Under the pieces are notes generated by a model, which saw only the letters and a program-made list of their open reading frames with translations, made no database searches and was not told the DNA's origin. A stretch of 11,142 nucleotides of DNA from Granulicella sp. (GTDB lineage Bacteria > Acidobacteriota > Terriglobia > Terriglobales > Acidobacteriaceae), in the NCBI GenBank assembly GCA_003133205.1, contig PKWK01000090.1:1-11142 (forward strand), read 5' to 3'. Of the stretch, positions 1 to 11,142 are shown piece by piece; within the stretch, counting starts at the first letter, position 1, and each line of letters starts with the position of its first letter. A program made the position numbers and the translations under genes.

Positions 1-1
1 G

Positions 2-202
2 CGGCGGGCCAAGCTCGAAGGCAGGCATATTGGGCGGAAGGCCCTGGTCCTCGATCGGGCCGCCATCCATCGTGACCGCCAGCAAGGTCACAGCCTAGGA
101 CAGCTGGCGAAGAGCTACCTGGTCTCCCGAACGACTATCCATCGGGTGCTCGGCGAGCAAATCCCTGCCGTTACAAAAGGCCTCGAAAAACCCGCCGCCT
201 AA
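2..202 (+). CDS. Serine recombinase (resolvase/invertase), C-terminal part, copy A
   Basis: This is the 3' end of a resolvase/invertase-family serine recombinase, running off the left edge. The visible 66 residues begin with RRAKLEGRHIGRKAL and equal the C-terminus of the complete copy at 10275-10886. They cover the end of the long E-helix/hinge (the arginine-rich RRAKLEGR stretch) and the C-terminal helix-turn-helix (GHSLGQLAKSYLVSRTTIHRVL), which in this family binds half-sites of the crossover sequence. The catalytic domain lies outside the window. The gene points rightwards into the cargo, and its stop codon is 16 bases before the first palindrome. The copy is intact as far as it can be seen. 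Its nucleotide identity with the other copy implies recent duplication or ongoing homogenisation. Confidence 0.93.
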   Translation, partial: RRAKLEGRHIGRKALVLDRAAIHRDRQQGHSLGQLAKSYLVSRTTIHRVLGEQIPAVTKGLEKPAA

Positions 203-218
203 ACCCCACAGAATCAGG

Positions 219-239
219 GCCGGATCTCACCGATCCGGC
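219..239. other. Palindrome 1 after recombinase copy A
   Basis: Perfect inverted repeat with arms GCCGGATC and GATCCGGC around a 5-base centre (TCACC), starting 16 bases after the recombinase stop codon. No T-run follows, so it is not a standard intrinsic terminator for the + strand. It could be a recombinase accessory site, a structural RNA end, or part of a bidirectional transcription block. The same element occurs inverted at 10238-10258. Confidence 0.8.
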
Positions 240-240
240 T

Positions 241-266
241 GTTCCACAACCTGTGGGTTGTGAAAC
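241..266. other. Palindrome 2: candidate recombinase crossover site, left
   Basis: A 26-bp imperfect palindrome: left arm GTTCCACAACC, centre TGTG, right arm GGTTGTGAAAC; 10 of 11 arm positions pair. Sites of the serine DNA invertases (hix, gix) are likewise about 26 bp with two roughly 12-bp half-sites around a 2-bp core. The inverted-repeat identity ends one base further on (267), which makes this palindrome the element's inner end. Its role as a crossover site is inferred from size, symmetry and place, not from recognisable hix/res sequence. Confidence 0.5.
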
Positions 267-267
267 A

Positions 268-689
268 TATAGGGCTGGGTGCAGATGAAACCAGCCGGTG
301 TTAGCACGTTTCACGCAAACAATCTCGTCGACTCTGACAAAGCACAGAAAAGCTGGGTGGGCCCCAGCCCTCGGAACTCACCCATCTCTTATTCCTCGGC
401 CCAGCGGAACTGTCAGCGAAGGCTTTTCCGCCGACTGCGTAAGGTCCGGCGTGACGGGAGCAACAATGTACGGTGGTTCGAGCCGCGTAATCGTGATCCT
501 TGGCGGCGTAGCGTTGCCGCGCATTACAAGTTGATGATTTTCGCGTCGACGGAGCAACCCTTACTACAGTCAACAATCGCTACCTAACTTTAACCCGCCA
601 GTAACTACAGTCCCGCTGCACCAAGCCTACCCTCACTCTGCTCGCGAGATCGCGCGGGCATTCACAACTTCAACACAGAGGCGCATTCG
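268..689. other. 422-base non-coding stretch, no gene recognised
   Basis: Several overlapping short open frames exist on both strands here, but none has a ribosome-binding site, a recognisable domain or a consistent codon pattern, so no gene is called. A small hairpin lies at 352-368 (arms GCTGGG and CCCAGC). The 9-mer ACTACAGTC occurs twice, at 563-571 and 604-612, upstream of the phosphoesterase; a regulator-site role is possible but unsupported. No -35/-10 pair with good spacing was found by eye, although the promoter for the gene at 690 must lie here unless it is read from the recombinase side. The stretch may include degraded remnants of older genes. Confidence 0.5.
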
Positions 690-2711
690 ATGCCGAACCA
701 AAGCCGCACCCCCCGCAGCATCGCTTTCCGCTGCAGCGCAGCCCTCATGGCTGCACTGCAAGTGTTCGCAGGTGGTCTCCCTGCGCTCGCGCAATCCAAC
801 GACAAGAACGACAGTAGCGCCGGCACGTACACGCCCATCAAGCACGTTATCGTCATCATCGGAGAGAACCGCACCTTCGACCACATCTTCGCTACCTACA
901 AGCCTATCAAAGGCGAGACCGTGGACAATCTCTTGCACAAGGGCATCATCTACGACGATGGGACTCCCGGGCCCAACGTCTCGCTCGCGCGCCAGTACTC
1001 CGCCAAGGACACCCACGCCGACCATTACCTGGTCAGCCCCATGGATAAGTCGCTCTATCCGCACCTGCCCACGCCGCTCGCCGGTGGCCCCACGGTTCCC
1101 TTCCTCTCCAGCGTGCCCCTCGCTGAGTTTGTCGAGAACGGCCTCCCCAACCTGCAGTACTACACCTACGCCACGACCGGAGGCACCGGCCTCGCGACAG
1201 GCGTGCCCGACACCCGCATCCCAAACCTCAACAGCCTGCCCGACGGACCGTTTCAGCTCACTCCCGGCATCCCCTACGACGCCTACGCCGGCAGCCCCGT
1301 CCACCGCTTCTACCAGATGTGGCAGCAGCTCGACTGCAACATCAACTTCTCCGACGAGTGGAACCCTAGCGGCTGCAAGGCTGATCTCTTCCCCTGGGTC
1401 GGCATCACTGCCGGCTCCGACACCAATGGCGCGCCGCAGCCGGTCCCCTTCACCGAACAGACGCAGGGTGAGGGCGGCAACTCCATGGGCTTCTACAACG
1501 TCCAGCAGGGCGATGCGCCCTACCTCAAATCGCTCGCCGACAACTACGCCATGAGCGACAACTACCACCAGGCCGTCATGGGCGGCACCGGAGCTAACCA
1601 CGTCATGATGGGCACGGGCGACGCCATCTTCTTCACCAACGCAAAGGGCGACCCTGTCACTCCGCCCGAGAACGTGCTCGTTGCCGCCGGCACGGCAAAC
1701 GCCGGAGTCGTCAGCGAGATCGAGAATCCGAACGCCATGCCCGGCACCAATAACTACTACACCGAGGACGGTTACGGAGCAGGTTCGGCCGGCAAGCCGT
1801 CCTCAGGCGGCGGCAGCTACAGTAACTGTTCCGACTCCGATGCCCCAGGCGTCCGCTCGGTCCTCAGCTACCTCAATTCGCTGCCCTACGAAGTGGACCC
1901 GAAGTGCGAGGCTGGGCACTACTACCTCCTCAACAACTACAACCCCGGCTACTTCGCCAACGGGGCCAACGCCTACACCGACCCCAACCCCAAGAACACC
2001 GTCTTCACTGTCCCGCCCTCCAGCCTCCGCACCATCGGCGACGCGCTGCTGGAGAAGAACATCTCCTTCAAGTACTACGGCGACGACTGGGACCGCGCTA
2101 AGGCCGATCCCTATTACCAGAATCCCATCAACGTCTACTGCAACATCTGCAACTTCTTCCAGTACTCGAGCAACATCATGACCAACCCCGCCCTTGTTGC
2201 GGCCCACCTACAGGACACCACCGACCTCTACACGGACATCACCAACAACACCCTTCCGGCCGTCTCCTTTGTCAAGCCCAGCGGCCTCGTCGACGGTCAC
2301 CCCGGCACCTCCAAGGTCGATCTCTTCGAAGGCTTCACCAAGAAGATCGTCGACATGGTGCAGGCCAACCCCAAAGTCTGGGCCGATACCGCCATCCTGG
2401 TCACCTTCGACGAAGGCGGCGGCTACTACGACTCAGGATACGTGCAGCCCGTCGACTTCTTCGGCGACGGGACCCGCATCCCCATGCTGGCCATCTCACC
2501 CTTCACCAAGCCCGGCCACATCTCACACCAGTACAACGACCACGTCTCGATCCTCAAGTTCATCGAGTACAACTGGAAGCTGAAACCGCTCACCGATCGC
2601 AGCCGCGACAACCTCCCCAACCCCAAACAGAAGGGGGCCAACCCCTACGTCCCCACCAACTCGCCCGCCATCGGCGACCTCACCGATCTCTTTGACTTTG
2701 ACAAGAAGTAG
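690..2711 (+). CDS. Secreted phosphoesterase (PF04185 type; acid phosphatase/phospholipase C-like)
   Basis: A 673-residue exported hydrolase of the PF04185 phosphoesterase family, which belongs to the alkaline-phosphatase-like superfamily and includes Francisella AcpA and bacterial phospholipases C. Residues 1-34 form a signal peptide ending PALA before QSND. The catalytic domain opens with KHVIVIIGENRTFDHIF (51-67); E59-N60 match the Glu-Asn metal ligands known in AcpA. The segment around GGTGANH (298-304) probably carries the nucleophile, with T300 a candidate by analogy with phospholipases C. D574-E575 in FDEGGGYYD match the second Asp-Glu metal pair, and NDHVSILKFIEYNW (616 on) is the typical end of the domain. 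It acts in the periplasm or outside the cell; the substrate (phosphomonoester, phospholipid or other) cannot be told. ATG 690 follows AGAGG at 677-681. A terminator lies 24 bases after the stop, so the gene is probably its own transcription unit. Codons mostly end in C, unlike the YncE fusion at 7146. Confidence 0.9.
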   Translation: MPNQSRTPRSIAFRCSAALMAALQVFAGGLPALAQSNDKNDSSAGTYTPIKHVIVIIGENRTFDHIFATYKPIKGETVDNLLHKGIIYDDGTPGPNVSLARQYSAKDTHADHYLVSPMDKSLYPHLPTPLAGGPTVPFLSSVPLAEFVENGLPNLQYYTYATTGGTGLATGVPDTRIPNLNSLPDGPFQLTPGIPYDAYAGSPVHRFYQMWQQLDCNINFSDEWNPSGCKADLFPWVGITAGSDTNGAPQPVPFTEQTQGEGGNSMGFYNVQQGDAPYLKSLADNYAMSDNYHQAVMGGTGANHVMMGTGDAIFFTNAKGDPVTPPENVLVAAGTANAGVVSEIENPNAMPGTNNYYTEDGYGAGSAGKPSSGGGSYSNCSDSDAPGVRSVLSYLNSLPYEVDPKCEAGHYYLLNNYNPGYFANGANAYTDPNPKNTVFTVPPSSLRTIGDALLEKNISFKYYGDDWDRAKADPYYQNPINVYCNICNFFQYSSNIMTNPALVAAHLQDTTDLYTDITNNTLPAVSFVKPSGLVDGHPGTSKVDLFEGFTKKIVDMVQANPKVWADTAILVTFDEGGGYYDSGYVQPVDFFGDGTRIPMLAISPFTKPGHISHQYNDHVSILKFIEYNWKLKPLTDRSRDNLPNPKQKGANPYVPTNSPAIGDLTDLFDFDKK

Positions 2712-2735
2712 TCCGCGCCTACAGTTTCTCCATTT

Positions 2736-2785
2736 GGACCATCACTCAGACAAAAATACCGTCTCAGTGGTGGTCCGCTTTTTTT
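2736..2785 (+). terminator. Strong intrinsic terminator of the phosphoesterase gene
   Basis: A 16-bp stem, with one mismatch and one G-U pair, is formed by 2736-2751 (GGACCATCACTCAGAC) and 2761-2776. It has a 9-base A-rich loop, then GC and seven T residues at 2779-2785. It begins 24 bases after the phosphoesterase stop codon and separates that gene from the receptor gene. Confidence 0.88.
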
Positions 2786-2900
2786 CTCCGCGCGCCGAAG
2801 CCATAAGAGGATCTCACTGAGCGGCATCAAGGCCGTCGACTCGGGATGACCTGGGATGGCGATGGTTTCTCCGTTCGAGATCCTATCCTTCGCCGAATAA

Positions 2901-2929
2901 GTGACAGCGATTACACGTATTCGATTAAT
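2901..2929 (+). promoter_or_regulatory. Candidate sigma-70-type promoter for the TonB-dependent receptor
   Basis: GTGACA at 2901-2906 matches the -35 consensus at five of six positions. ATTAAT at 2924-2929 matches the -10 at four of six, with the optimal 17-base spacer. It lies in the only notably AT-rich part of the 331-base spacer, after the upstream terminator. Transcription from it would give a leader of roughly 105 bases before ATG 3043. Found by eye only, so moderate to low support. Confidence 0.33.
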
Positions 2930-3042
2930 TTGCCTGTTATTCACCTGACGTACAAGTTGGGTGGATAGAACCGTTGTGGTGAGACGTTCGGCTGAAGCTG
3001 AGCAGCTCAAATTTCCCAGCCACAAGTGGTTTGCGAGGCTCC

Positions 3043-6000
3043 ATGAGAATTCCGTGCCGCGGCGCGCTGCGCCTGATCCTGTTTGTCATATTGCTTATTT
3101 CGAGTACCTGCGCGTTCTCGCAGCAGACTCTCGGTGGCCTGACCGGAACCATAGTCGATGGCTCAGGCGCGGTCCTGGTTGGCGCCAAGGTGCAACTCAC
3201 CGGCAACAGCAATGGCATATCGCTTACGACTACTACCCAGCGTAACGGTGTTTACCAGTTTCAGAACCTTCCTGTAGGCACTTATACCCTGGTCTTCACA
3301 GAGCCGGGCTTCGATGCCGTGCGGGTTCCGTCGGTGCCGGTGCAGGAGAACCGCACCGCAACGATCAACGGTAAACTGAAGGTCGGAAGCGCCACCACGA
3401 CGATCGTGGTCAACGAGACGCCGCTGCTGAACGAGACGGATGCCACGAACGGCTATGTTCTCGACTCCGCGGAGATCCAGGAGACGCCGCTGGCGACCGG
3501 CAGCTTTACTCGTCTCGCGCTGCTTACGCCGGGCGTCAGCGCCGAGTTACTGGGCGGCATCGGCACCAACGCCGGCCTCGGCAATGCGCCGATCTGGGCT
3601 AACGGCCAGCGCGACACCAGCAACGGCTTCAACGTGGACGGCGTGGACGTTACCAACCTGTTCAACGGCAAGTCCTCGTCCCAGAGTCAGTCGCAGCGTT
3701 ACAGCTTCAACATCGGCCAGTCGAACACCGGCACAGTCGGCGGGCAGAACGTGACCAGCACGTCGGTTTACGGATCGAACGGCAATGGCTTGGCCACGCC
3801 GCCGCCCGAGTTTATTCAGGAGCTCCGCGTCAACACGTCGCAGTACGATTCTCAGCAGGGCAACCACAGCGGCGCACAAATCGACGTCAACACCGCGACC
3901 GGCAGCAACCGGTTTCATGGCCAGGCGTTCGGCAACCGGGCAACAAACTTCATTAATGCCGCGCCCTACTTCAACAAGCAGGCCTACTCCTACCAGCAGA
4001 ATCCTATGTTGCCGAACCCCTCTTTCCCCCTTAGCATGGTCGTGCCGCAGTTACACCGTGACATCCTCGGAGGTACGTACGGCGGTCCGATCCTGAAGGA
4101 CAAGTTGTTCTTCTTTGCCGGTTATGAAAACCAGCATGTCACCGACGCCTTAAAGGGTTACTCGTCCGTTACGGTCCCTCAGGGGCTTACGGACGACCGC
4201 TCTCAGGCTGGCATTCTCAACGCCATCAACAGTTGGAATGCTACTACGACATCCGCAGCGGTCAAAGGCACGGCGGTCCCCTTCAACGGGACCTTCGACC
4301 CGGTTGCCATGGCTCTGCTAACCGCCAAGCTCAACAACGGACAATACCTTATTCCTTCCGTGCAGAATGCGATTTCTGCGCCGAACCTTGGGCCCAACGT
4401 ATTTCTTCAGCAACCATCGCTGTTCCAGGTGAATGAGGCGACTACGGCGTTGGACTACAACGTGAACTCGAAAGATCGGCTCTCGGCGAAGTACTACTAC
4501 CAACACTCCCCGGACTTGAATCCGTTCAGCAACGCGAACACGGGCGGATTTCCCGCCACTGAAGATTCGGGCGCGCAGGTTGGCGCGCTGACCAACTCCA
4601 TCACTGTCGGCCCTCGCCTCAACTGGGAGCAGCGTTTCGGCTTCTCCCGCCAGAAGGTCTACACCACGTTCAAAGCGCAACTCCCCGACAGCACATTTGG
4701 CATCGGTTTCCCTGGTGCGTCCTCGCTGCCTGGAATTTCGCTGGGTAAGTTCGCTTACTCGAGCGGCGGCGCGGTGACCACCGGGCCAAACAGCACCTTC
4801 GCCAACGAGGGCTACTTCCAGAACCGCTGGAACCCCTCAACCAACCTCATCTTCTCCATCGGCAAGCACAACTTGTCTGCCGGCAGCAGCTACAGCTACA
4901 CCCAGTTGGATATTCGCAACCGGCGAGCCAATCTCGGCAGCGTATCTACCGCTAACTTCGTCACCTTCGTCGAAGGTCAGGCGAGTAGTTCCAACGAACT
5001 CATCGGCAATGCGAATCGCTACTATCGGGCCAACGAGATTGGCACCTATTTGCAAGATCAATGGCGCCTGCTATCCAACCTCAGCATTACGGCTGGCATT
5101 CGGTACGACTACGACGGCGGATTCACCGAGAAGTACGGAAACATGTTCAACTTCGATCCTTCCGTCTATAACGTCACGCAGAGCGCGGTCGTCAACAGCG
5201 GATTCGTAGTGGCAGGCAACAACGCCTACTCCCCTACGGCCGGCGTCAGCAACTCGACGCTTACCGGGCGGCAGTGGGGCATCGCGCCACGCCTTGGGTT
5301 CGCCTACACACCCAGTCAGACCGGTGGCAAACTCGTGATTCGCGGGGGCGCAGGCATTTACTACGACCGCGGCGAACTCTTCAGCTATCTGTCGCAGCCC
5401 GCCGGCGGCAGTACGGGTGGCCCCTTCGGAGTCACCCAAGCCGCGCCTCTGGTGAACTACGTGACCGGCAGCGGCGTTACCAGTACCGGCGCAATAGCCC
5501 CAATGACCCTTGAAAACCCGCTTGGTGGAGCAGTCATTCCCGCGTCCTCCTCCGATCCCTCCACCTTTAGCGCGAAGCTCCCAACCGCCAGCCAGATTCG
5601 CGCGACCTGCACCGGTTTGGCCGTGGAAACCACCAAATCCAACAGCGACTGCAGCGTGACACCGTATAACTTCGGTGCTTATGCTCGCGATAACAAACTG
5701 CCGTACACCATCAGCTACAGCTTCAACGTTCAGTACCAACTGACAAAGGACATGGCTGCCACGGTCGGCTATAGCGGTAATCGTTCGCGCCACCTGGTCG
5801 TGCCGGTCCCGTTCAACGAGCCCGGCATCGCGACTCCGACCAACCCAATCAATGGGGAGACCAGCAGCTACGGGTACGAGGTGCTCAATACAAATCCAGC
5901 GGTGTCGTCGGGTAAGTACTACACGCCCATCTCCACCGAGCCATACGACACCTACAGTGGCGGCAACATCGATCTTCGTGTCCCGTATGTTGGCTATAGC

Positions 6001-6981
6001 CCGAACGCAGCACTTTACAAAGCGGCCGCCAACGCGGCTTACGATTCCCTGCAGGCGCACTTGGAAAAGCGAATGTCCAACTACGTCCAGGTGGGCGCAT
6101 CCTATACCTACAGCCACGCGCTGGATGAGCAGAGCGATCTTGGCCTGTTCTTTACTGGCGACAACCCGAACAATCTGCGCGACTCATGGGCTTCGGCCGA
6201 CTTCGACCGCACCCATACCATCGTGTTCAACTATGTGATCCAGATTCCGAAGCTGGCGCGCGACGCAAGCCTGCTCGGCAAGTTCACCAACGGATGGCAG
6301 TTAGTTGGCATCACCACACTGCAGAGCGGCCAGCCGTACAGCTTGTACGAATACGACGGAGCAGTCGGCAGCATTTATTTTGGTAACTACCCGACGCTGG
6401 CCAACCCAGTGCTCGGCATCAAGGACGGCGCTCACCCTAAGTCCGCTATGACGGGTCACTCCGGCTCTCAACTCAACGTCTCGTCACCCGGAACTTATAC
6501 GTACGTTCCCGCGATCGATCCGAGCCAACTCCAGGTCAACTACCTACAGCCAGGGCAGAAGGGCATTCCGGCCTGCAACACTAACGAACCCTGCGACGTA
6601 TTCGAAACCGACTTCACACCGGGACAACGCAACATCTTCCGGCAGTCCTTCCAAAAAGATGCGGACGTGTCGTTCCAGAAGATCACGAAACTCTCGGAGC
6701 GTTACTCGGCCCGCTACACATTCGACGTCTATAACCTAACCAACTCGGTCAGCCTCGACGCACCCAATAACAGCGCCAGCGTCAGCCAGAGCAAACTGAC
6801 GCCGCCCACCGGCGGCACTGCCGTGGCCTACGGTCAGGTTGCAACAAGCACAGCGACACAAAGCGCAGATGTCAGCCGGCTGTATGTCACTCCCACACTT
6901 GGGGCGACTAGCTTCGGATCGGTGCGCAACGCGATCGGTCAGCCAAGGACGATTGAAATGTCACTTCACCTGGTGTTCTAA
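3043..6981 (+). CDS. Oar-like TonB-dependent outer-membrane receptor with carboxypeptidase-regulatory domain
   Basis: A 1312-residue outer-membrane protein of the large Oar-like TonB-dependent receptor family, abundant in Acidobacteriota. Residues 1-26 are a signal peptide (hydrophobic LRLILFVILLISS, then CAFS before QQ). Residues about 31-115 form a carboxypeptidase-regulatory-like beta-sandwich (LTGTIVDGSGAVLVGAKV, then NGVYQFQNLPVGTYTL). Next come a plug domain (NETPLLNETDATN, TPLATGSFTRLALLTPGV, NGFNVDGVDVTNLF) and a long beta-barrel. It ends in SLHLVF, the terminal aromatic expected for barrel insertion. Length is normal for this group (about 1000-1300). I chose ATG 3043, preceded by GAGG at 3035-3038 although the spacing is short. 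The in-frame TTG at 3031 would add four residues and has no better site. Its ligand is unknown. Lying between two phosphoesterases, it may import or bind a phosphorylated or organic product; that is inference from position. Confidence 0.93.
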   Translation: MRIPCRGALRLILFVILLISSTCAFSQQTLGGLTGTIVDGSGAVLVGAKVQLTGNSNGISLTTTTQRNGVYQFQNLPVGTYTLVFTEPGFDAVRVPSVPVQENRTATINGKLKVGSATTTIVVNETPLLNETDATNGYVLDSAEIQETPLATGSFTRLALLTPGVSAELLGGIGTNAGLGNAPIWANGQRDTSNGFNVDGVDVTNLFNGKSSSQSQSQRYSFNIGQSNTGTVGGQNVTSTSVYGSNGNGLATPPPEFIQELRVNTSQYDSQQGNHSGAQIDVNTATGSNRFHGQAFGNRATNFINAAPYFNKQAYSYQQNPMLPNPSFPLSMVVPQLHRDILGGTYGGPILKDKLFFFAGYENQHVTDALKGYSSVTVPQGLTDDRSQAGILNAINSWNATTTSAAVKGTAVPFNGTFDPVAMALLTAKLNNGQYLIPSVQNAISAPNLGPNVFLQQPSLFQVNEATTALDYNVNSKDRLSAKYYYQHSPDLNPFSNANTGGFPATEDSGAQVGALTNSITVGPRLNWEQRFGFSRQKVYTTFKAQLPDSTFGIGFPGASSLPGISLGKFAYSSGGAVTTGPNSTFANEGYFQNRWNPSTNLIFSIGKHNLSAGSSYSYTQLDIRNRRANLGSVSTANFVTFVEGQASSSNELIGNANRYYRANEIGTYLQDQWRLLSNLSITAGIRYDYDGGFTEKYGNMFNFDPSVYNVTQSAVVNSGFVVAGNNAYSPTAGVSNSTLTGRQWGIAPRLGFAYTPSQTGGKLVIRGGAGIYYDRGELFSYLSQPAGGSTGGPFGVTQAAPLVNYVTGSGVTSTGAIAPMTLENPLGGAVIPASSSDPSTFSAKLPTASQIRATCTGLAVETTKSNSDCSVTPYNFGAYARDNKLPYTISYSFNVQYQLTKDMAATVGYSGNRSRHLVVPVPFNEPGIATPTNPINGETSSYGYEVLNTNPAVSSGKYYTPISTEPYDTYSGGNIDLRVPYVGYSPNAALYKAAANAAYDSLQAHLEKRMSNYVQVGASYTYSHALDEQSDLGLFFTGDNPNNLRDSWASADFDRTHTIVFNYVIQIPKLARDASLLGKFTNGWQLVGITTLQSGQPYSLYEYDGAVGSIYFGNYPTLANPVLGIKDGAHPKSAMTGHSGSQLNVSSPGTYTYVPAIDPSQLQVNYLQPGQKGIPACNTNEPCDVFETDFTPGQRNIFRQSFQKDADVSFQKITKLSERYSARYTFDVYNLTNSVSLDAPNNSASVSQSKLTPPTGGTAVAYGQVATSTATQSADVSRLYVTPTLGATSFGSVRNAIGQPRTIEMSLHLVF

Positions 6982-6992
6982 GTCGGTCCGTC

Positions 6993-7024
6993 AGAGAAGC
7001 TCGGACTTCGGTTCGGGCTTCTCT
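6993..7024 (+). terminator. UUCG-tetraloop hairpin after the receptor gene, likely terminator
   Basis: A 14-bp stem (two G-U pairs) of 6993-7006 (AGAGAAGCTCGGAC) with 7011-7024 closes on the very stable TTCG tetraloop (7007-7010) with the preferred C-G closing pair. It starts 12 bases after the receptor stop codon. The following bases (TGGTCTCGATTCTT) are only partly T-rich, so termination may be incomplete. It sits inside a further 7-bp pairing, CGGTCCG (6984-6990) with CGGACCG (7047-7053). Confidence 0.6.
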
Positions 7025-7057
7025 TGGTCTCGATTCTTCGGTCGCTCGGACCGGTTG

Positions 7058-7095
7058 ACTCTCATGGAGAGTTTCTGACGCCCTGAAGCCAGGGC
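7058..7095 (+). other. Two small hairpins in the leader of the YncE/phosphoesterase gene
   Basis: ACTCTC-ATG-GAGAGT (7058-7072) and GCCCTG-AAGC-CAGGGC (7080-7095) are both perfect short inverted repeats between the receptor terminator and the next start codon. The spacer of 164 bases therefore carries three successive hairpins. No known riboswitch or attenuator is recognised; they may be RNA structure in the leader or operator-like sites. Confidence 0.45.
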
Positions 7096-7145
7096 CTGAC
7101 GGAATGAATTATTCAACAGATAGAAACTCAGGCGGATTCGTAACT

Positions 7146-10034
7146 ATGCGGAAACTTGCGTTTTATTTTGTAACTTTTAGCGTGGCGCTTCCGGGGGCTT
7201 GGGCACAACAGAAGGCACCAGCAGCCGATTCGGTTTTTGGGCAGATCAATTTGCCTTCGAGCAAACAATTGGGTGCGGTACCTGGAGATCCACAGCGACT
7301 GAACTCGCTGCCGATGTCGTTGGCGGTATCTCCGGACGGACGCTACGTGGTGACGGTGAACGCGGGGTACGGGACGTTCGAGTCGAAGTACGAGCAATCG
7401 TTGGCGGTGATGGACACGCGGACGGGGAAGGTGACGGACTTTCCCGACGACCGCACGACGACCAGGGATAGGCAGACGCTGTACTCGGGGCTGGCGTTCA
7501 GCGGTGATGGAAAGCATGTGTACGCGAGCATGGCTTCGCTGACAGCGCCGGTGGCGGGAGAGGTGCCGGCGAACCGGTGGCAGGGGGCACGCGATGCTCA
7601 GCCAGCTCCGAGACCGAACACAGGTAACGGAGTGGCGGTGTACAGCTTCGACGAAGGCAGGATTGCGCCTGAGCGGATCATCCCCATTCCGCTGCAGAAG
7701 CTGGCGGGGTCCCGGAGGACGAAGCTGATCAGGGACGCAGATGGAACAAAGGGCGTGCCATATCCGGCAGCGATCGCGGTCGTCGGAGAGGCAGGCGCGG
7801 AGAAACTGCTGGTCGCGGACAATCTTTCCGACGACGCACTTCTGATCGATGCAACGACAGGGAAGGTGGAGATACGGTTCGATCTTTCGGAGAGCGACGC
7901 TGTGCCGGGGACGTATCCCGTGGCCGTGGCGGTGTCCAAGGACCGGATGCGGGCGTTTGTGGCGCTGTGGAACGCGAGTGAGGTAGTGGAACTCGATTTG
8001 AGGCAGGGCACCCTGGGGCGGAAACTGGCGCTGCTGAAGCCGACCGATCCGATAGCGCCGGGAACGCATCCGTGCGCGATGGAGATCTCGCCGGATGGGC
8101 GCACGCTGTATGTGGCGCTGTCGAACCGGGATGCGGTAGCGGCAGTGGATGTTTCGGGAACTGGAGCGGCGGCGAGATTTGCAGTGAAGGGGTACTTTGA
8201 TACGCGGTTGCCAGGCCAGAGCTACTTTGGCGCGGAGCCGGACGCGCTGGCTGTGAGCGGCGATGGCGCTCGGCTGTATGCCGCGAACATGGGTTCGGAC
8301 GCGGTGGCGGTGATTGACACGAAGAAGCTGACGGCCGCGGCGGCGAGGCAGGGGATGGTGGAGCCGGTGGGATTCATTCCGACGGAGTGGATGCCAACGG
8401 CGCTGGCGACGGCGGGAGAGAAGCTGTACGTCGCGACGGCGAAGGGACGTGGCACGGGTCCGAACAACTTCGCGCAGAGGCAGGTGCCTGGTGTGACAGC
8501 GAGGCGGGGAGACTTTACGTACATCGCAACCCTGCTGTACGGGTCACTGGCTGCGCTGGATCCAGCGGCGGTGGACCTGAGGGCGTCGACGGAAGAGGTG
8601 CTGCAGTCGAACCGGATGAAGGCGGCGGAGGAAAAGATTGCATTTGCGGGTGGCACCAACCCCATCAAGCATGTGATCTACATCATCAAGGAGAACCGGA
8701 CCTACGACCAGATCTTCGGCGACCTGAAGCAGAATGGGAAACAGGTGGGGAATGGGCTTCCGAGCCTGGCGATGTATGGCGAGGCTGTTACACCCAACGA
8801 GCACGAGTTGGCGCTACGGTTCGGAGTGTTGGACAACTTTTACGATTCGGCGGAGATCTCGGGCGACGGGCACGTGTGGTCGAACGCGGCGATCGGGACT
8901 GACTACCTGGAGAAGACCTGGGAACAGGACTACCGCAACTCGCAGCGGACCTACGACTACGAGGGGATGGTAGCGAATGGCTACCCGCTTCAGCAGAGGA
9001 TTCCGGATGTCAATGAGCCCGCGAGCGGCTACATGTGGGGCAATGCAGCTGCGCACGCCAAGACGCATTACAACTTCGGCGAGTACATTGCGTCGACGTT
9101 CTGCGGCGCAAAAGCGAGCGCAAGTTCGCAGGATGGTCCGCTGTTGGAGGGGACGACGTGCCAGCGCGATGCGATCCAGCCGGGAGGGCCGATTCCAGCG
9201 GAGTGGGGCGGCGGCGTGAGCAAGTGGCCTTGGGCAATTCCACTGCTGGCTAAGAATGTCCCCACGAAGCCGGAACTGGTGGGGCACTTTGCGCCGGAGT
9301 CGCCGGACTTCAATCTTCAGGTGCCGGACCAGATACGGATGAATGTGTTCCTAAAGCATTTCGAGGGATGGGTTGCGGACCGCGCGGCGGGCAGAGACAC
9401 GATGCCGAACTACATTACGATGCGGCTGGGGAACGACCATACGTCGGGGACGAGGCCAGGCGGGCCGACACCGAAGTCGTCTGTGGCGGACAATGACCTG
9501 GCCGTGGGACGAATTGTGGAGGCGATCTCGCACTCGGCGTACTGGGACGATACGGCAATCTTCATTCTCGAAGACGATGCGCAGAACGGCGCGGACCACG
9601 TAGATGCGCATCGCAGCCTGGCGCTGGTCGTGAGCAAGTACGCGCCGCGGACGGCGGATGGCGCCGCATTTGTAGACAGCCGATTTTATTCGACGGTGAG
9701 CGTGGTGCGGACGATGGAAACGCTGCTGGCATTGCCGCCGATGAATAATAACGATGCACTGGCGTCGTTGATGGGGTCGATGTTTACTGGGCCGGGCGAT
9801 CAGAAGCCGTTTGTTGCGGATACTGTGAATCGAGATAATGGCCTGATCTACGCGGCCAACGGTGCCAAGGCGGTGGGAGCGGCGGCGTCCATGAAGATGG
9901 ATTTCGCCCACGAGGACCGTGCGGACGCACAGAAGCTGAATGTGATCCTGTGGAAAGATGCAATGGGCGACAAGGCAGTTCCTGCGCAGTTGTTACACAA
10001 GCAGAAAACGCCAAAGAAAGACAGCGATGACTGA
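7146..10034 (+). CDS. Bifunctional YncE-like beta-propeller/alkaline-phosphatase-family protein
   Basis: A 962-residue exported protein joining an N-terminal YncE/YVTN-type beta-propeller to a C-terminal PF04185-type phosphoesterase domain, a known fusion architecture. Signal peptide: MRKLAFYFVTFSVALPGAWA, then QQ. Propeller blades repeat the pattern seen in LAVSPDGRYVVTVNAG (59-74), LAFSGDGKHVYASMAS, MEISPDGRTLYVALSN and LAVSGDGARLYAANMG, up to about residue 450. The enzyme part starts at NPIKHVIYIIKENRTYDQIF (505-524) with metal ligands E516-N517. SGDGHVWSN (572-580) probably holds the nucleophile region. It continues with RLGNDHTSG (from 760) and ILEDDAQNGADHVDAHRS (807 on), which carries the distal metal-binding acids and histidines. 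I chose ATG 7146 because it begins the signal peptide, with AGGCGG about 10 bases upstream; ATG 7104 would put 14 polar residues in front. The enzyme acts in the periplasm or outside; substrate unknown. Codons mainly end in G, in contrast to the gene at 690. Confidence 0.92.
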   Translation: MRKLAFYFVTFSVALPGAWAQQKAPAADSVFGQINLPSSKQLGAVPGDPQRLNSLPMSLAVSPDGRYVVTVNAGYGTFESKYEQSLAVMDTRTGKVTDFPDDRTTTRDRQTLYSGLAFSGDGKHVYASMASLTAPVAGEVPANRWQGARDAQPAPRPNTGNGVAVYSFDEGRIAPERIIPIPLQKLAGSRRTKLIRDADGTKGVPYPAAIAVVGEAGAEKLLVADNLSDDALLIDATTGKVEIRFDLSESDAVPGTYPVAVAVSKDRMRAFVALWNASEVVELDLRQGTLGRKLALLKPTDPIAPGTHPCAMEISPDGRTLYVALSNRDAVAAVDVSGTGAAARFAVKGYFDTRLPGQSYFGAEPDALAVSGDGARLYAANMGSDAVAVIDTKKLTAAAARQGMVEPVGFIPTEWMPTALATAGEKLYVATAKGRGTGPNNFAQRQVPGVTARRGDFTYIATLLYGSLAALDPAAVDLRASTEEVLQSNRMKAAEEKIAFAGGTNPIKHVIYIIKENRTYDQIFGDLKQNGKQVGNGLPSLAMYGEAVTPNEHELALRFGVLDNFYDSAEISGDGHVWSNAAIGTDYLEKTWEQDYRNSQRTYDYEGMVANGYPLQQRIPDVNEPASGYMWGNAAAHAKTHYNFGEYIASTFCGAKASASSQDGPLLEGTTCQRDAIQPGGPIPAEWGGGVSKWPWAIPLLAKNVPTKPELVGHFAPESPDFNLQVPDQIRMNVFLKHFEGWVADRAAGRDTMPNYITMRLGNDHTSGTRPGGPTPKSSVADNDLAVGRIVEAISHSAYWDDTAIFILEDDAQNGADHVDAHRSLALVVSKYAPRTADGAAFVDSRFYSTVSVVRTMETLLALPPMNNNDALASLMGSMFTGPGDQKPFVADTVNRDNGLIYAANGAKAVGAAASMKMDFAHEDRADAQKLNVILWKDAMGDKAVPAQLLHKQKTPKKDSDD

Positions 10035-10036
10035 GT

Positions 10037-10051
10037 CTGGAATGATTCCAG
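10037..10051. other. Perfect short palindrome just after the YncE/phosphoesterase stop
   Basis: CTGGAAT-G-ATTCCAG is symmetric around 10044 and begins two bases after the stop codon. No T-run follows, so it is at best a weak transcript end or a protein-binding site. From here to 10209 I see no gene: a 31-codon frame from ATG 10091 to 10186 lacks a ribosome-binding site at a usable distance. Confidence 0.4.
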
Positions 10052-10210
10052 CAAGCGTTGTGGTTCAAGCGCAGGAAAATTGAGTTGCATATGACGATGA
10101 AGGACTGCGCGACGAAGTCTGCAACCGTTATGAGTAGAATGATCACCGATTCACTCATCGGGGGAGCAGAACATCGTAGAGTTTGATGTGTCCGTTTGGG
10201 CGGGTGGAGT

Positions 10211-10236
10211 GTTTCACAACCCACAGGTTGTGGAAC
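10211..10236. other. Palindrome 2: candidate recombinase crossover site, right
   Basis: Inverted copy of the 26-bp palindrome at 241-266: arms GTTTCACAACC and GGTTGTGGAAC around CACA. It is the innermost part of the right arm, one base from where identity with the left arm is lost. Recombination between the two copies, which are in opposite orientation, would invert the DNA between them. The crossover role is inferred. Confidence 0.5.
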
Positions 10237-10237
10237 A

Positions 10238-10258
10238 GCCGGATCGGTGAGATCCGGC
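10238..10258. other. Palindrome 1 after recombinase copy B
   Basis: Inverted copy of 219-239: GCCGGATC, GGTGA, GATCCGGC, ending 16 bases before the recombinase stop codon on the minus strand. One base separates it from the 26-bp palindrome, so both travel as a unit with the gene. It may also block transcripts arriving from either side, since the YncE/phosphoesterase gene and this recombinase converge here. Confidence 0.8.
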
Positions 10259-10274
10259 CCTGATTCTGTGGGGT

Positions 10275-10886
10275 TTAGGCGGCGGGTTTTTCGAGGCCTT
10301 TTGTAACGGCAGGGATTTGCTCGCCGAGCACCCGATGGATAGTCGTTCGGGAGACCAGGTAGCTCTTCGCCAGCTGTCCTAGGCTGTGACCTTGCTGGCG
10401 GTCACGATGGATGGCGGCCCGATCGAGGACCAGGGCCTTCCGCCCAATATGCCTGCCTTCGAGCTTGGCCCGCCGCATCCCGGCGCGCACTCGCTCGACG
10501 ATCAGGCTGCGCTCCAGTTCAGCGATCGCCCCGATGATGACCACAACCGCCCGGCCCAGGGGCCCGCCGGTATCGATCTGTTCGCGGAAGCTGATGAACT
10601 CGGTGTTCAACCGGTTCAGCTCGTCCAGCAACTCGAGGAAGTGCCTCACTGACCTGGCGATGCGGTCGCAAGCCCAGACTAGGACGACATCGAATTGACC
10701 GCGGCGGGCATCGCGCATCATGGCATCGAGTCCCGGCCGGCGGGCCTTCGTGCTACTGATCATGTCGGTGTACTCCTCGACGATCTCGTAGCCGCGCTGC
10801 TTCGCCATCTCGTGGAGGTCGTAGAGTTGAGTTTCAGGGTGCTGATCGAGGGTGGAGACCCTCATATATAAGGCGGCGCGTTTCAT
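10275..10886 (-). CDS. Serine recombinase (resolvase/invertase family), copy B, complete
   Basis: A 203-residue small serine recombinase, the usual length for Tn3-type resolvases and Hin/Gin-type invertases (about 180-205). The N-terminal catalytic domain begins MKRAALYMRVSTLDQ with active-site R9 and S11. VLVWACDRIARSVRHF carries the conserved D-R-x-x-R catalytic arginines. EQIDTGGPLGRAVVVIIGAIAELERSLIVERVRAGMRRAKLEG is the usual run into the long E-helix, so no key residue appears lost. Residues about 158-192 form the DNA-binding helix-turn-helix. It cuts and rejoins DNA at short palindromic sites through a serine-DNA bond; whether it resolves or inverts cannot be read from the sequence alone. 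AAGGG lies 8-9 bases before the ATG. The gene faces inward, converging with the cargo, and is identical over the visible part to copy A. Confidence 0.94.
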   Translation of the reverse strand: MKRAALYMRVSTLDQHPETQLYDLHEMAKQRGYEIVEEYTDMISSTKARRPGLDAMMRDARRGQFDVVLVWACDRIARSVRHFLELLDELNRLNTEFISFREQIDTGGPLGRAVVVIIGAIAELERSLIVERVRAGMRRAKLEGRHIGRKALVLDRAAIHRDRQQGHSLGQLAKSYLVSRTTIHRVLGEQIPAVTKGLEKPAA

Positions 10887-10930: not shown

Positions 10931-11142
10931 AGAAACGGAGAGAAAAGGGCCCACTTTGGACACTCCACTGTCGGCAACACGACCTACGCAGCCCTTCATC
11001 CTGAAGTAGAAGGCCTCAACCCAGAAGACTACCCGGACATCAACAAGCTGGGCATCCTGGCCGACATCGCTCCCTACTCTCGTGAGTACAACCGAGTCCG
11101 CGCCGTCGTCGACAAGCAGTCCCACGGCGACCTCGAGCTGCG
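10931..11142 (+). pseudogene. Start-less open frame, probable 5'-disrupted gene remnant (runs off the right edge)
   Basis: The frame is open for 70 codons from just after an in-frame TAA (10928-10930) to the window edge. It reads like real protein: GHSTVGNTTYAALHPEVEGL, then NPEDYPDINKLGILADIAPY and SREYNRVRAVVDKQSHGDLEL. It contains no ATG, GTG or TTG in frame, so its start is missing. The frame begins about 45 bases from the recombinase start codon, as expected if the recombinase element landed inside the gene. I do not recognise the family. The frame is rich in D, E, R and Y and has no signal peptide or membrane segment in view. A frameshift or an unusual start further in are alternatives. 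Confidence 0.45.

What the first reader, a model, noticed from the sequence alone, without database searches (positions are those of the whole stretch)
1..10886. Receptor/phosphoesterase cargo bracketed by identical inward-facing serine recombinases
A 267-bp perfect inverted repeat, each arm holding a recombinase 3' end plus the same palindromes, encloses three exported-protein genes. Inverted sites with a resident invertase-type enzyme would predict inversion of the whole 9.9-kb module. That would flip whether readthrough from each recombinase promoter is sense or antisense to the cargo, a possible large-scale phase switch for a surface nutrient module. I know of no described system with this content.
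Basis: partly seen in the sequence, partly recalled or inferred. Interest (0 to 1): 0.8.

Follow-up and report, generated by a model that had tools for sequence, protein, structure and literature searches.

The report
Invertase-bracketed islands carrying virion-gene fragments
Soil bacteria related to Granulicella carry stretches of ordinary genes locked between two mirror-image copies of a DNA-flipping enzyme, and next to most copies sits a piece of a phage's particle-building gene, which looks like an unknown kind of island shaped by phage infection.

Summary
In detail: window 1-267 and 10210-10476 are a perfect inverted repeat; each arm ends inside in a 26-bp palindrome next to a serine recombinase whose closest solved relative is Gin. 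It is not a one-off artefact. Including the window I found 17 inward-facing loci; one chromosome-sized contig, G252, has five, with 2.1-2.5-kb arms. The window's left copy is cut because the window starts inside the arm. Cargo differs between pairs (restriction, toxin-antitoxin-like, metabolism, TonB receptors), so a dedicated nutrient phase switch is not supported. Inversion or exchange of cargo at the sites is likely but unproven. In five units that share a fragment, it has co-diverged with the recombinase with low dN/dS. Eighteen more distant recombinase loci show neither fragment nor inverted partner. The six paper searches that ran listed nothing like it.

The parts
1..267 (+). Left arm (copy A), truncated by the window start: recombinase 3' end (2-202), hairpin, 26-bp site
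   Evidence: Perfect inverted repeat of 10210-10476
2..202 (+). Last 66 codons and stop of recombinase copy A
   Evidence: ORF open at the window's first bases; translation identical to the end of copy B
219..239 (.). Hairpin GCCGGATC-N5-GATCCGGC, left copy
   Evidence: Read from the sequence; a hairpin at this place recurs in many other units
241..266 (+). 26-bp imperfect palindrome (12+2+12), putative invertase crossover site, left
   Evidence: arm identity stops 1 bp past it
690..2711 (+). Cargo: phosphoesterase family protein (PF04185)
3031..6981 (+). Cargo: outer-membrane barrel, TonB-receptor-like, with CarboxypepD_reg domain
   Evidence: syntenic homologue in G406
7104..10034 (+). Cargo: beta-propeller + phosphoesterase protein
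   Evidence: relatives in 275 of 398 family genomes
10210..10476 (-). Right arm (copy B part of the inverted repeat)
10211..10236 (-). 26-bp palindrome, right copy, inverted relative to the left one
10238..10258 (.). Hairpin, right copy
   Evidence: mirror of the left copy
10275..10886 (-). Small serine recombinase (Resolvase domain + HTH), 203 aa; closest solved structures are Gin DNA invertase
10958..11140 (+). Fragment of a phage late gene (gene X; residues 745-805 of a 1336-aa phage protein), reading away from the recombinase; no in-frame ATG/GTG/TTG start seen; cut by the window end
   Evidence: tblastn 70% identity over 61 aa; translation, ORF search

Best explanation
The window holds one member of a recurrent family of Acidobacteriaceae islands. 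Variable host genes (about 3-25 kb) lie between two inverted arms that are near-identical within most pairs. Each full arm carries, from outside in: an outer phage-like motif (not visible in the window), a fragment of a late gene of one large phage family, optional Xre-like and RHH genes, a Gin-like serine recombinase, an optional small protein (g2), a hairpin, and a 26-bp palindromic site. SHOWN: the architecture, its recurrence, the inward facing of every pair found, the common orientation of the phage fragments, and low dN/dS in one shared fragment. INFERRED: the recombinase cuts at the centre of the 26-bp sites, so inverted sites flip the cargo and, with other sites, cargo can be exchanged; the long arms can also recombine homologously. 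INFERRED, weaker: the captured fragment is a functional gene that interferes with, or parasitises, that phage family, and the recombinase module is what gains, keeps or spreads such units. The receptor/phosphoesterase genes are passengers, not the purpose.
For: Inward-facing inverted pairs at 17 loci, including chromosome-sized contigs G252 (5 pairs, 10 recombinase copies, arms 2097-2493 bp, 95.8-100% identical), G052 (2525 bp, 100%) and G137 (626 bp, 99.4%). No second copy in the same direction in any of the 46 inner stretches examined, many of them short. The recombinase's best PDB matches are Gin. The units end at a 26-bp site after which homology is lost in most rows. In the G252 5543-kb pair the arm identity ends at the core of the site plus 1 bp. 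L003/L004, 99.7% identical over 5601 bp, diverge at the site. Phage late-gene fragment in 41 of 46 copies, 40 reading away from the recombinase. The fragment shared by L008, L011, L015, L118 and L013 co-diverges with the recombinase (dS 0.54-1.17 vs 0.44-1.03) with dN/dS about 0.11-0.28 over the ten pairs. In 25 host genomes, all chosen because they carry the recombinase, genes X and V occur only as fragments of 41-213 aa, 16 of 23 and 5 of 5 of them beside a known unit.
Against: No direct proof of inversion: no genome pair shows both orientations of one cargo, and L003/L004 could also be cargo replacement or two arms sampled from low-coverage MAGs (each inner sequence absent from the other MAG but for short repeats; 8 mismatches lie in the 82 bp before divergence). 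Several copies have no visible partner: L007, L011, L013, L117 in 7.9-8.7 kb, L106 and L110 in about 20 kb. In the window the fragment has no standard start in frame, so it may be dead there. No in-frame stop was seen in the local matches of 12 loci, but longer matches contain stops in L012's, L103's and L109's loci and in G006. Low dN/dS could also arise if the fragment is kept similar to living phages for a nucleic-acid reason. In five of 46 copies no fragment was found. Outer arm ends are not conserved and no target duplication was seen.
Confidence: 0.55

Rival explanations
1. Assembly or amplification chimera: the inverted arm is a fold-back artefact at a contig end.
For: The window starts inside copy A, and in six other loci a contig ends inside one arm (L015, L063, L066, L107, L108, L109).
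Against: The same architecture lies inside single contigs of 5.65-6.27 Mb (G252, G052, G137) and in the middle of a 214-kb contig with 87%-identical arms (L002), which a fold-back would not give. The window's arm ends at a site conserved in many loci.
Confidence: 0.04
2. Composite-transposon-like or long-TIR mobile island: two copies of one mobile unit in inverted orientation move the cargo between genomes; flipping is incidental.
For: Multi-copy, varied cargo, near-identical arms, fixed relative orientation; L002 lies between a tRNA-Phe with an adjacent phage-type integrase ORF (named by eye) and a 50-bp direct repeat about 32 kb away.
Against: No target-site duplication and no conserved outer terminus at seven pairs inspected; no transposase recognised in the unit. 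The searches for empty sites found the outer flank in 1 of 31 and 3 of 31 genomes, i.e. the carrier itself and two weak partial hits, so they neither support nor exclude mobility.
Confidence: 0.2
3. Phage satellite or defective-phage derivative: the units are parasites of the large phage family, carrying a late-gene fragment and a phage-native motif for packaging or interference.
For: Fragments from one phage family, common strand orientation, and an outer motif also found once each in phage records G016, G018 and G020; low dN/dS in a shared fragment.
Against: No primase, terminase or capsid-remodelling family recognised in the proteins scanned (only part of the cargo); the fragment differs between units, unlike a fixed packaging site; the window's fragment has no normal start.
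Confidence: 0.25
4. One reading: a large-scale phase switch controlling a surface nutrient module by inversion.
For: Inverted sites with a resident Gin-like enzyme; another pair (L105) also carries a TonB receptor.
Against: Cargo is unrelated in the other pairs I could name. The window's cargo genes are co-directional and two of them are common chromosomal stock.
Confidence: 0.07

Closest known systems
Phage DNA-inversion systems (Gin/Cin/Hin type; details recalled)
   Same: Gin-like small serine recombinase; about 26-bp palindromic sites with a 2-bp core, in inverted orientation around a segment
   Different: Two recombinase copies, one in each arm; long near-identical arms; kilobases of unrelated cargo instead of alternative gene ends; phage late-gene fragments outside; enhancer/Fis not examined
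Composite transposons / long-TIR elements (recalled)
   Same: Two near-identical inverted units around variable cargo
   Different: No target duplication, no conserved outer end seen; no transposase recognised
Integrons (recalled)
   Same: Recombinase with divergently oriented captured pieces, followed by a hairpin-bearing motif, sometimes two motifs in a row (L014, L016, L063, L094)
   Different: Serine, not tyrosine, recombinase; pieces are phage gene fragments, not whole cassettes; attC not tested
Phage satellites such as PLE, PICI or P4 (recalled; a PLE paper seen only as listing and abstract start, PMC7567579)
   Same: Phage-linked, with phage structural-gene material
   Different: No satellite core genes recognised in what was scanned; paired inverted arms; cargo looks like ordinary host genes

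Membership tests
Hin/Gin-type DNA-inversion system | Small serine recombinase of the invertase group | tested here: met
   By closest match only: PDB 4m6f/3uj3 DNA-invertase, E 5e-24 and 2e-23, with gamma-delta resolvase at 8e-21; PHROG DNA invertase E 6e-50
Hin/Gin-type DNA-inversion system | Two crossover-like sites in inverted orientation flanking a segment | tested here: met
   241-266 and 10211-10236, identical and inverted; that they are crossover sites is inferred
Hin/Gin-type DNA-inversion system | Crossover at the central dinucleotide | tested here: inconclusive
   G252 5543-kb pair: arm identity ends at core +1 bp; in other pairs it ends later in the site or past it
Hin/Gin-type DNA-inversion system | Segment found in both orientations | tested here: inconclusive
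   L003 vs L004 diverge at the site but no shared inner sequence was found beyond short repeats
Hin/Gin-type DNA-inversion system | Recombinational enhancer / Fis dependence | not tested
   No enhancer search was made
Composite transposon | Target-site duplication and defined outer ends | tested here: not met
   Seven pairs inspected by eye, no shared outer terminus or duplication
Integron | Tyrosine integrase IntI | tested here: not met
   The enzyme is a serine recombinase
Phage satellite | Transfer or packaging by a helper phage | not testable with these tools
   Needs infection experiments
Phage satellite | Satellite core genes (primase, terminase small subunit, capsid remodelling) | tested here: inconclusive
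   None recognised in 29 distinct proteins scanned (27 from ten paired loci, 2 from L111), only part of the cargo; 19 of the 29 were scanned against PADLOC only

The most novel reading that the evidence does not exclude
A bacterial system that keeps pieces of virion genes of its phages, each locked beside an invertase operon in fixed orientation and preserved as coding sequence, as an inherited anti-phage (or phage-parasitic) repertoire, with inverted pairs of such units acting as platforms that flip and exchange host cargo when the phage's genes or products are present.
Probability: 0.3. Interest if true: 0.93.

Novelty: new variant of a known kind. Interest (0 to 1): 0.76.

Why it matters
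If the fragments are functional, this is a way for bacteria to keep pieces of phage particle genes under selection, tied to a DNA-rearranging enzyme. Relatives of this recombinase occur in 96 of 398 family genomes at E<=1e-30, though the more distant ones checked do not show the architecture. Even without that, it explains a class of long inverted repeats at which Acidobacteriota contigs break, and gives a testable route by which phage contact and chromosome inversion could be linked.

Tried and rejected
Artefact: rejected by chromosome-sized contigs with the same architecture. L111: first counted as a pair, dropped on re-checking: its 99-bp inverted repeat lies on the cargo side beyond the site and reads like a transposase fragment (by eye). 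Short inverted repeats in L116 (31 bp), L118 (49 bp) and L110 (126 bp) are not counted as pairs. Rfam scan of window, L001, L014 and L002: no match. Structured-RNA reading of the outer motif: an alignment of 21 copies gave 3 weak pairs and no pair changed on both sides, so I describe only a conserved sequence motif; hairpins were seen by eye and by single-sequence folding. CRISPR link: I-C-like arrays (type recalled) lie outside the units in L111 and L003/L004 only, so probably incidental. Conserved outer end AACTG: in 3 of 7 pairs, rejected. Defence cargo as the rule: PADLOC hits in 3 of 20 proteins plus McrBC in L100, not the rule. Antisense-sensor idea: read toward the recombinase the fragment is antisense to phage late genes; not excluded, but the coding-frame constraint fits a protein at least as well. 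Recombinase in IMG/VR by pattern scan: none, though one IMG/VR contig carries it beyond the phage integrase ORF. Empty sites: not found. Plasmid and phage collections: only distant recombinases. Papers: searches listed nothing like it; only listings and abstract starts were seen, except two passages of PMC11924767. Structure prediction, fold search and the search for homologous proteins were not used.

Full report
OBSERVATION. The window carries a perfect 267-bp inverted repeat, 1-267 and 10210-10476. Copy B encodes an intact 203-aa serine recombinase on the minus strand (10275-10886). Copy A shows only the last 66 codons because the window starts there. Each arm ends on its inner side with a hairpin (219-239 / 10238-10258) and a 26-bp imperfect palindrome (241-266 / 10211-10236); identity stops one base later. 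The enclosed genes are a phosphoesterase, a TonB-receptor-like barrel and a beta-propeller phosphoesterase. The recombinase has a Resolvase domain, matches the DNA-invertase family in PHROGs, and its closest solved structures are Gin invertase, with gamma-delta resolvase somewhat weaker.

RECURRENCE. No genome is held for the window. A scan of species genomes gave 23 relatives of the recombinase, all in Acidobacteriota MAGs by their titles. Inward-facing inverted pairs were found in L001, L002, L063, L065, L066 and L015/L064; in L099, L100, L101+L102, L104, L105, L107, L108 and L109 (partly re-checked); and in two more G252 pairs. With the window that is 17 loci, all inward-facing. In six of them (L015, L063, L066, L107, L108, L109) a contig ends inside one arm, so only 120-254 bp of that arm are seen, as in the window. 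Nine have both arms inside one contig away from its ends (L002, L065, L099, L100, L101+L102, L104, L105 and the two); in L065 one copy is only a partial recombinase. G252 is a single 5.99-Mb contig with five pairs (10 copies found; one search scored only 7 of 19 candidates, so there may be more). Its arms are 2303 bp (100%), about 2385 bp (95.8%), 2343 bp (99.6%), 2097 bp (100%) and 2493 bp (100%); the recombinases of a pair lie about 10-27 kb apart. Across 46 copies no second same-strand copy lies in the inner stretch examined. Not every copy has a visible partner: L007, L011, L013 and L117 show none in 7.9-8.7 kb, L106 and L110 none in about 20 kb, and many others are limited by contig ends. 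Recombinase relatives at E<=1e-30 occur in 96 of 398 genomes of the family sampled.

THE SITE. The unit ends at the same kind of palindrome in many loci, after which sequences are mostly unrelated (25 rows, one of them a reverse hit of the hairpin). Between the two arms of one pair the identity can stop inside the site: after GTATCAAAAGGTGTGGGTT in L100 and one base past the central dinucleotide in the G252 5543-kb pair. That fits strand exchange at the core, with the inner half-site travelling with the cargo. In other pairs identity or homology runs through the site (window, L099, L104, L105) or some 30-130 bp past it (L001, L002). L003 and L004, from two MAGs, are 99.7% identical over 5601 bp and part at the site, with 8 mismatches in the last 82 bp. 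Neither inner sequence is in the other MAG beyond short repeats. This shows a change at the site, but not whether it is inversion or cargo exchange, and the contig names give coverages of about 1.3, so absence is weak evidence.

CARGO. Cargo differs between the pairs that I could name: McrBC in L100; candidate defence proteins PDC-M65A/B in L104; a mad3-like protein in L109; Fic-like and toxin-antitoxin-like genes in L002 (named by eye); a glycyl-radical enzyme in L065; a TonB receptor in L105; an NmrA-like protein in L063. Only part of the cargo was scanned, and most proteins had no PADLOC hit. The window's third cargo gene has relatives at E<=1e-100 in 275 of 398 genomes, and window 2963-10072 aligns at 73.6% with a G406 stretch without recombinase hit. 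So at least two of the three cargo genes are ordinary chromosomal stock.

THE PHAGE FRAGMENTS. Directly outside the recombinase lies a fragment of a late gene from one phage family, seen in IMG/VR records G016-G020. Genes hit include V and Z (PHROG major head families; two of these in one phage is odd, so one label may be wrong), Y (tail sheath), and X and W (no PHROG match). V resembles capsid proteins of large myoviruses. Of 46 copies whose flanks I had, 41 have a phage hit and 40 read away from the recombinase; the exception, L114, is a 31%-identity hit to another gene. The five without a hit are L009 (52 bp of outer sequence only), L065, the right copy of L105, L106 and L110; L110 does carry the outer motif. 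Some close hits (for example in G400, G213, G243, G350) and fragmentary copies among L018-L023 were not put into this count. Copies are not independent; by their joints I count roughly 20 distinct captures. Of 18 more distant recombinases (52-67% identical), none has such a fragment or an inverted recombinase partner; the border is not sharp by identity, since L106 (64%), L110 (66%) and L114 (67%) in the first set also lack a clear fragment. In 25 host genomes, all chosen because they carry the recombinase, X occurs at 23 places and V at 5, only as fragments of 41-213 aa; 16 of 23 and 5 of 5 lie beside a known unit, the other seven (five in G006, one each in G041 and G115) were not tied to one.

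SELECTION. L008, L011, L015, L118 and L013 carry overlapping X fragments (about residues 649-790). Over their ten pairs, fragment dS (0.54-1.17) tracks recombinase dS (0.44-1.03), and fragment dN/dS is about 0.11-0.28. I read this as one old capture followed by co-descent under coding constraint. Against that, other fragments diverge more freely (for example Z in L113/L115, dN 0.87, over 49 codons), start codons are not conserved, the window's fragment has none in frame, and longer matches in L012's, L103's and L109's loci contain stops. Constraint to stay similar to living phages would look alike.

OTHER PARTS. Long units have an Xre-like and an RHH gene before the recombinase, and some have g2, a small protein with one hydrophobic stretch (by eye), after it; the window's unit lacks these, and its recombinase ends in the tail that elsewhere ends g2. 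At the outer end of many fragments is a conserved motif. It also occurs once each in phage records G020 (in the training set), G018 (97% related to it) and G016, on the strand opposite the late genes. L014, L016, L063 and L094 have two motifs in a row. The window ends before it would appear.

READING. I hold that this is an island type built around a Gin-like enzyme acting at the 26-bp sites (confidence 0.55 for the whole statement), with phage fragments as a functional, phage-directed part as the weaker inference. It works like an inversion system in its enzyme and sites, but membership is unproven because inversion was not shown. I call it a new variant of a known kind rather than categorically new, because the enzyme and sites are of a known kind and the function of the fragments is untested.

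Noticed in passing
L111:10528-11520; L003:4216-4519: CRISPR arrays with an I-C-like repeat (type recalled) about 1.1 kb outside the phage fragment; seen in these loci and the near-identical L004 only.
   Followed up: partly
G002:C63 about 81527-113548 (L059, L060): Likely tRNA-Phe genomic island with a phage-type integrase ORF and a 50-bp direct repeat that contains the L002 inverted pair.
   Followed up: partly
G020:C1 about 123278-123348; G016:C1:64481-64537; G018:C1:78289-78359: The outer motif of the host units also occurs once in each of these phage records, between genes and on the strand opposite the late genes; its role is unknown.
   Followed up: partly
L014, L016, L063, L094 outer regions: Two outer motifs in tandem, as if captured pieces could pile up in an array; what lies between them was not identified.
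   Followed up: partly
G006 contigs C54, C251, C150, C249, C285: Further X fragments, some with stop codons, not checked for a nearby recombinase.
   Followed up: no
L155:3-814 and 5458-6260: A 68%-identical inverted repeat of about 810 bp on either side of a more distant recombinase; different from the described arms.
   Followed up: no
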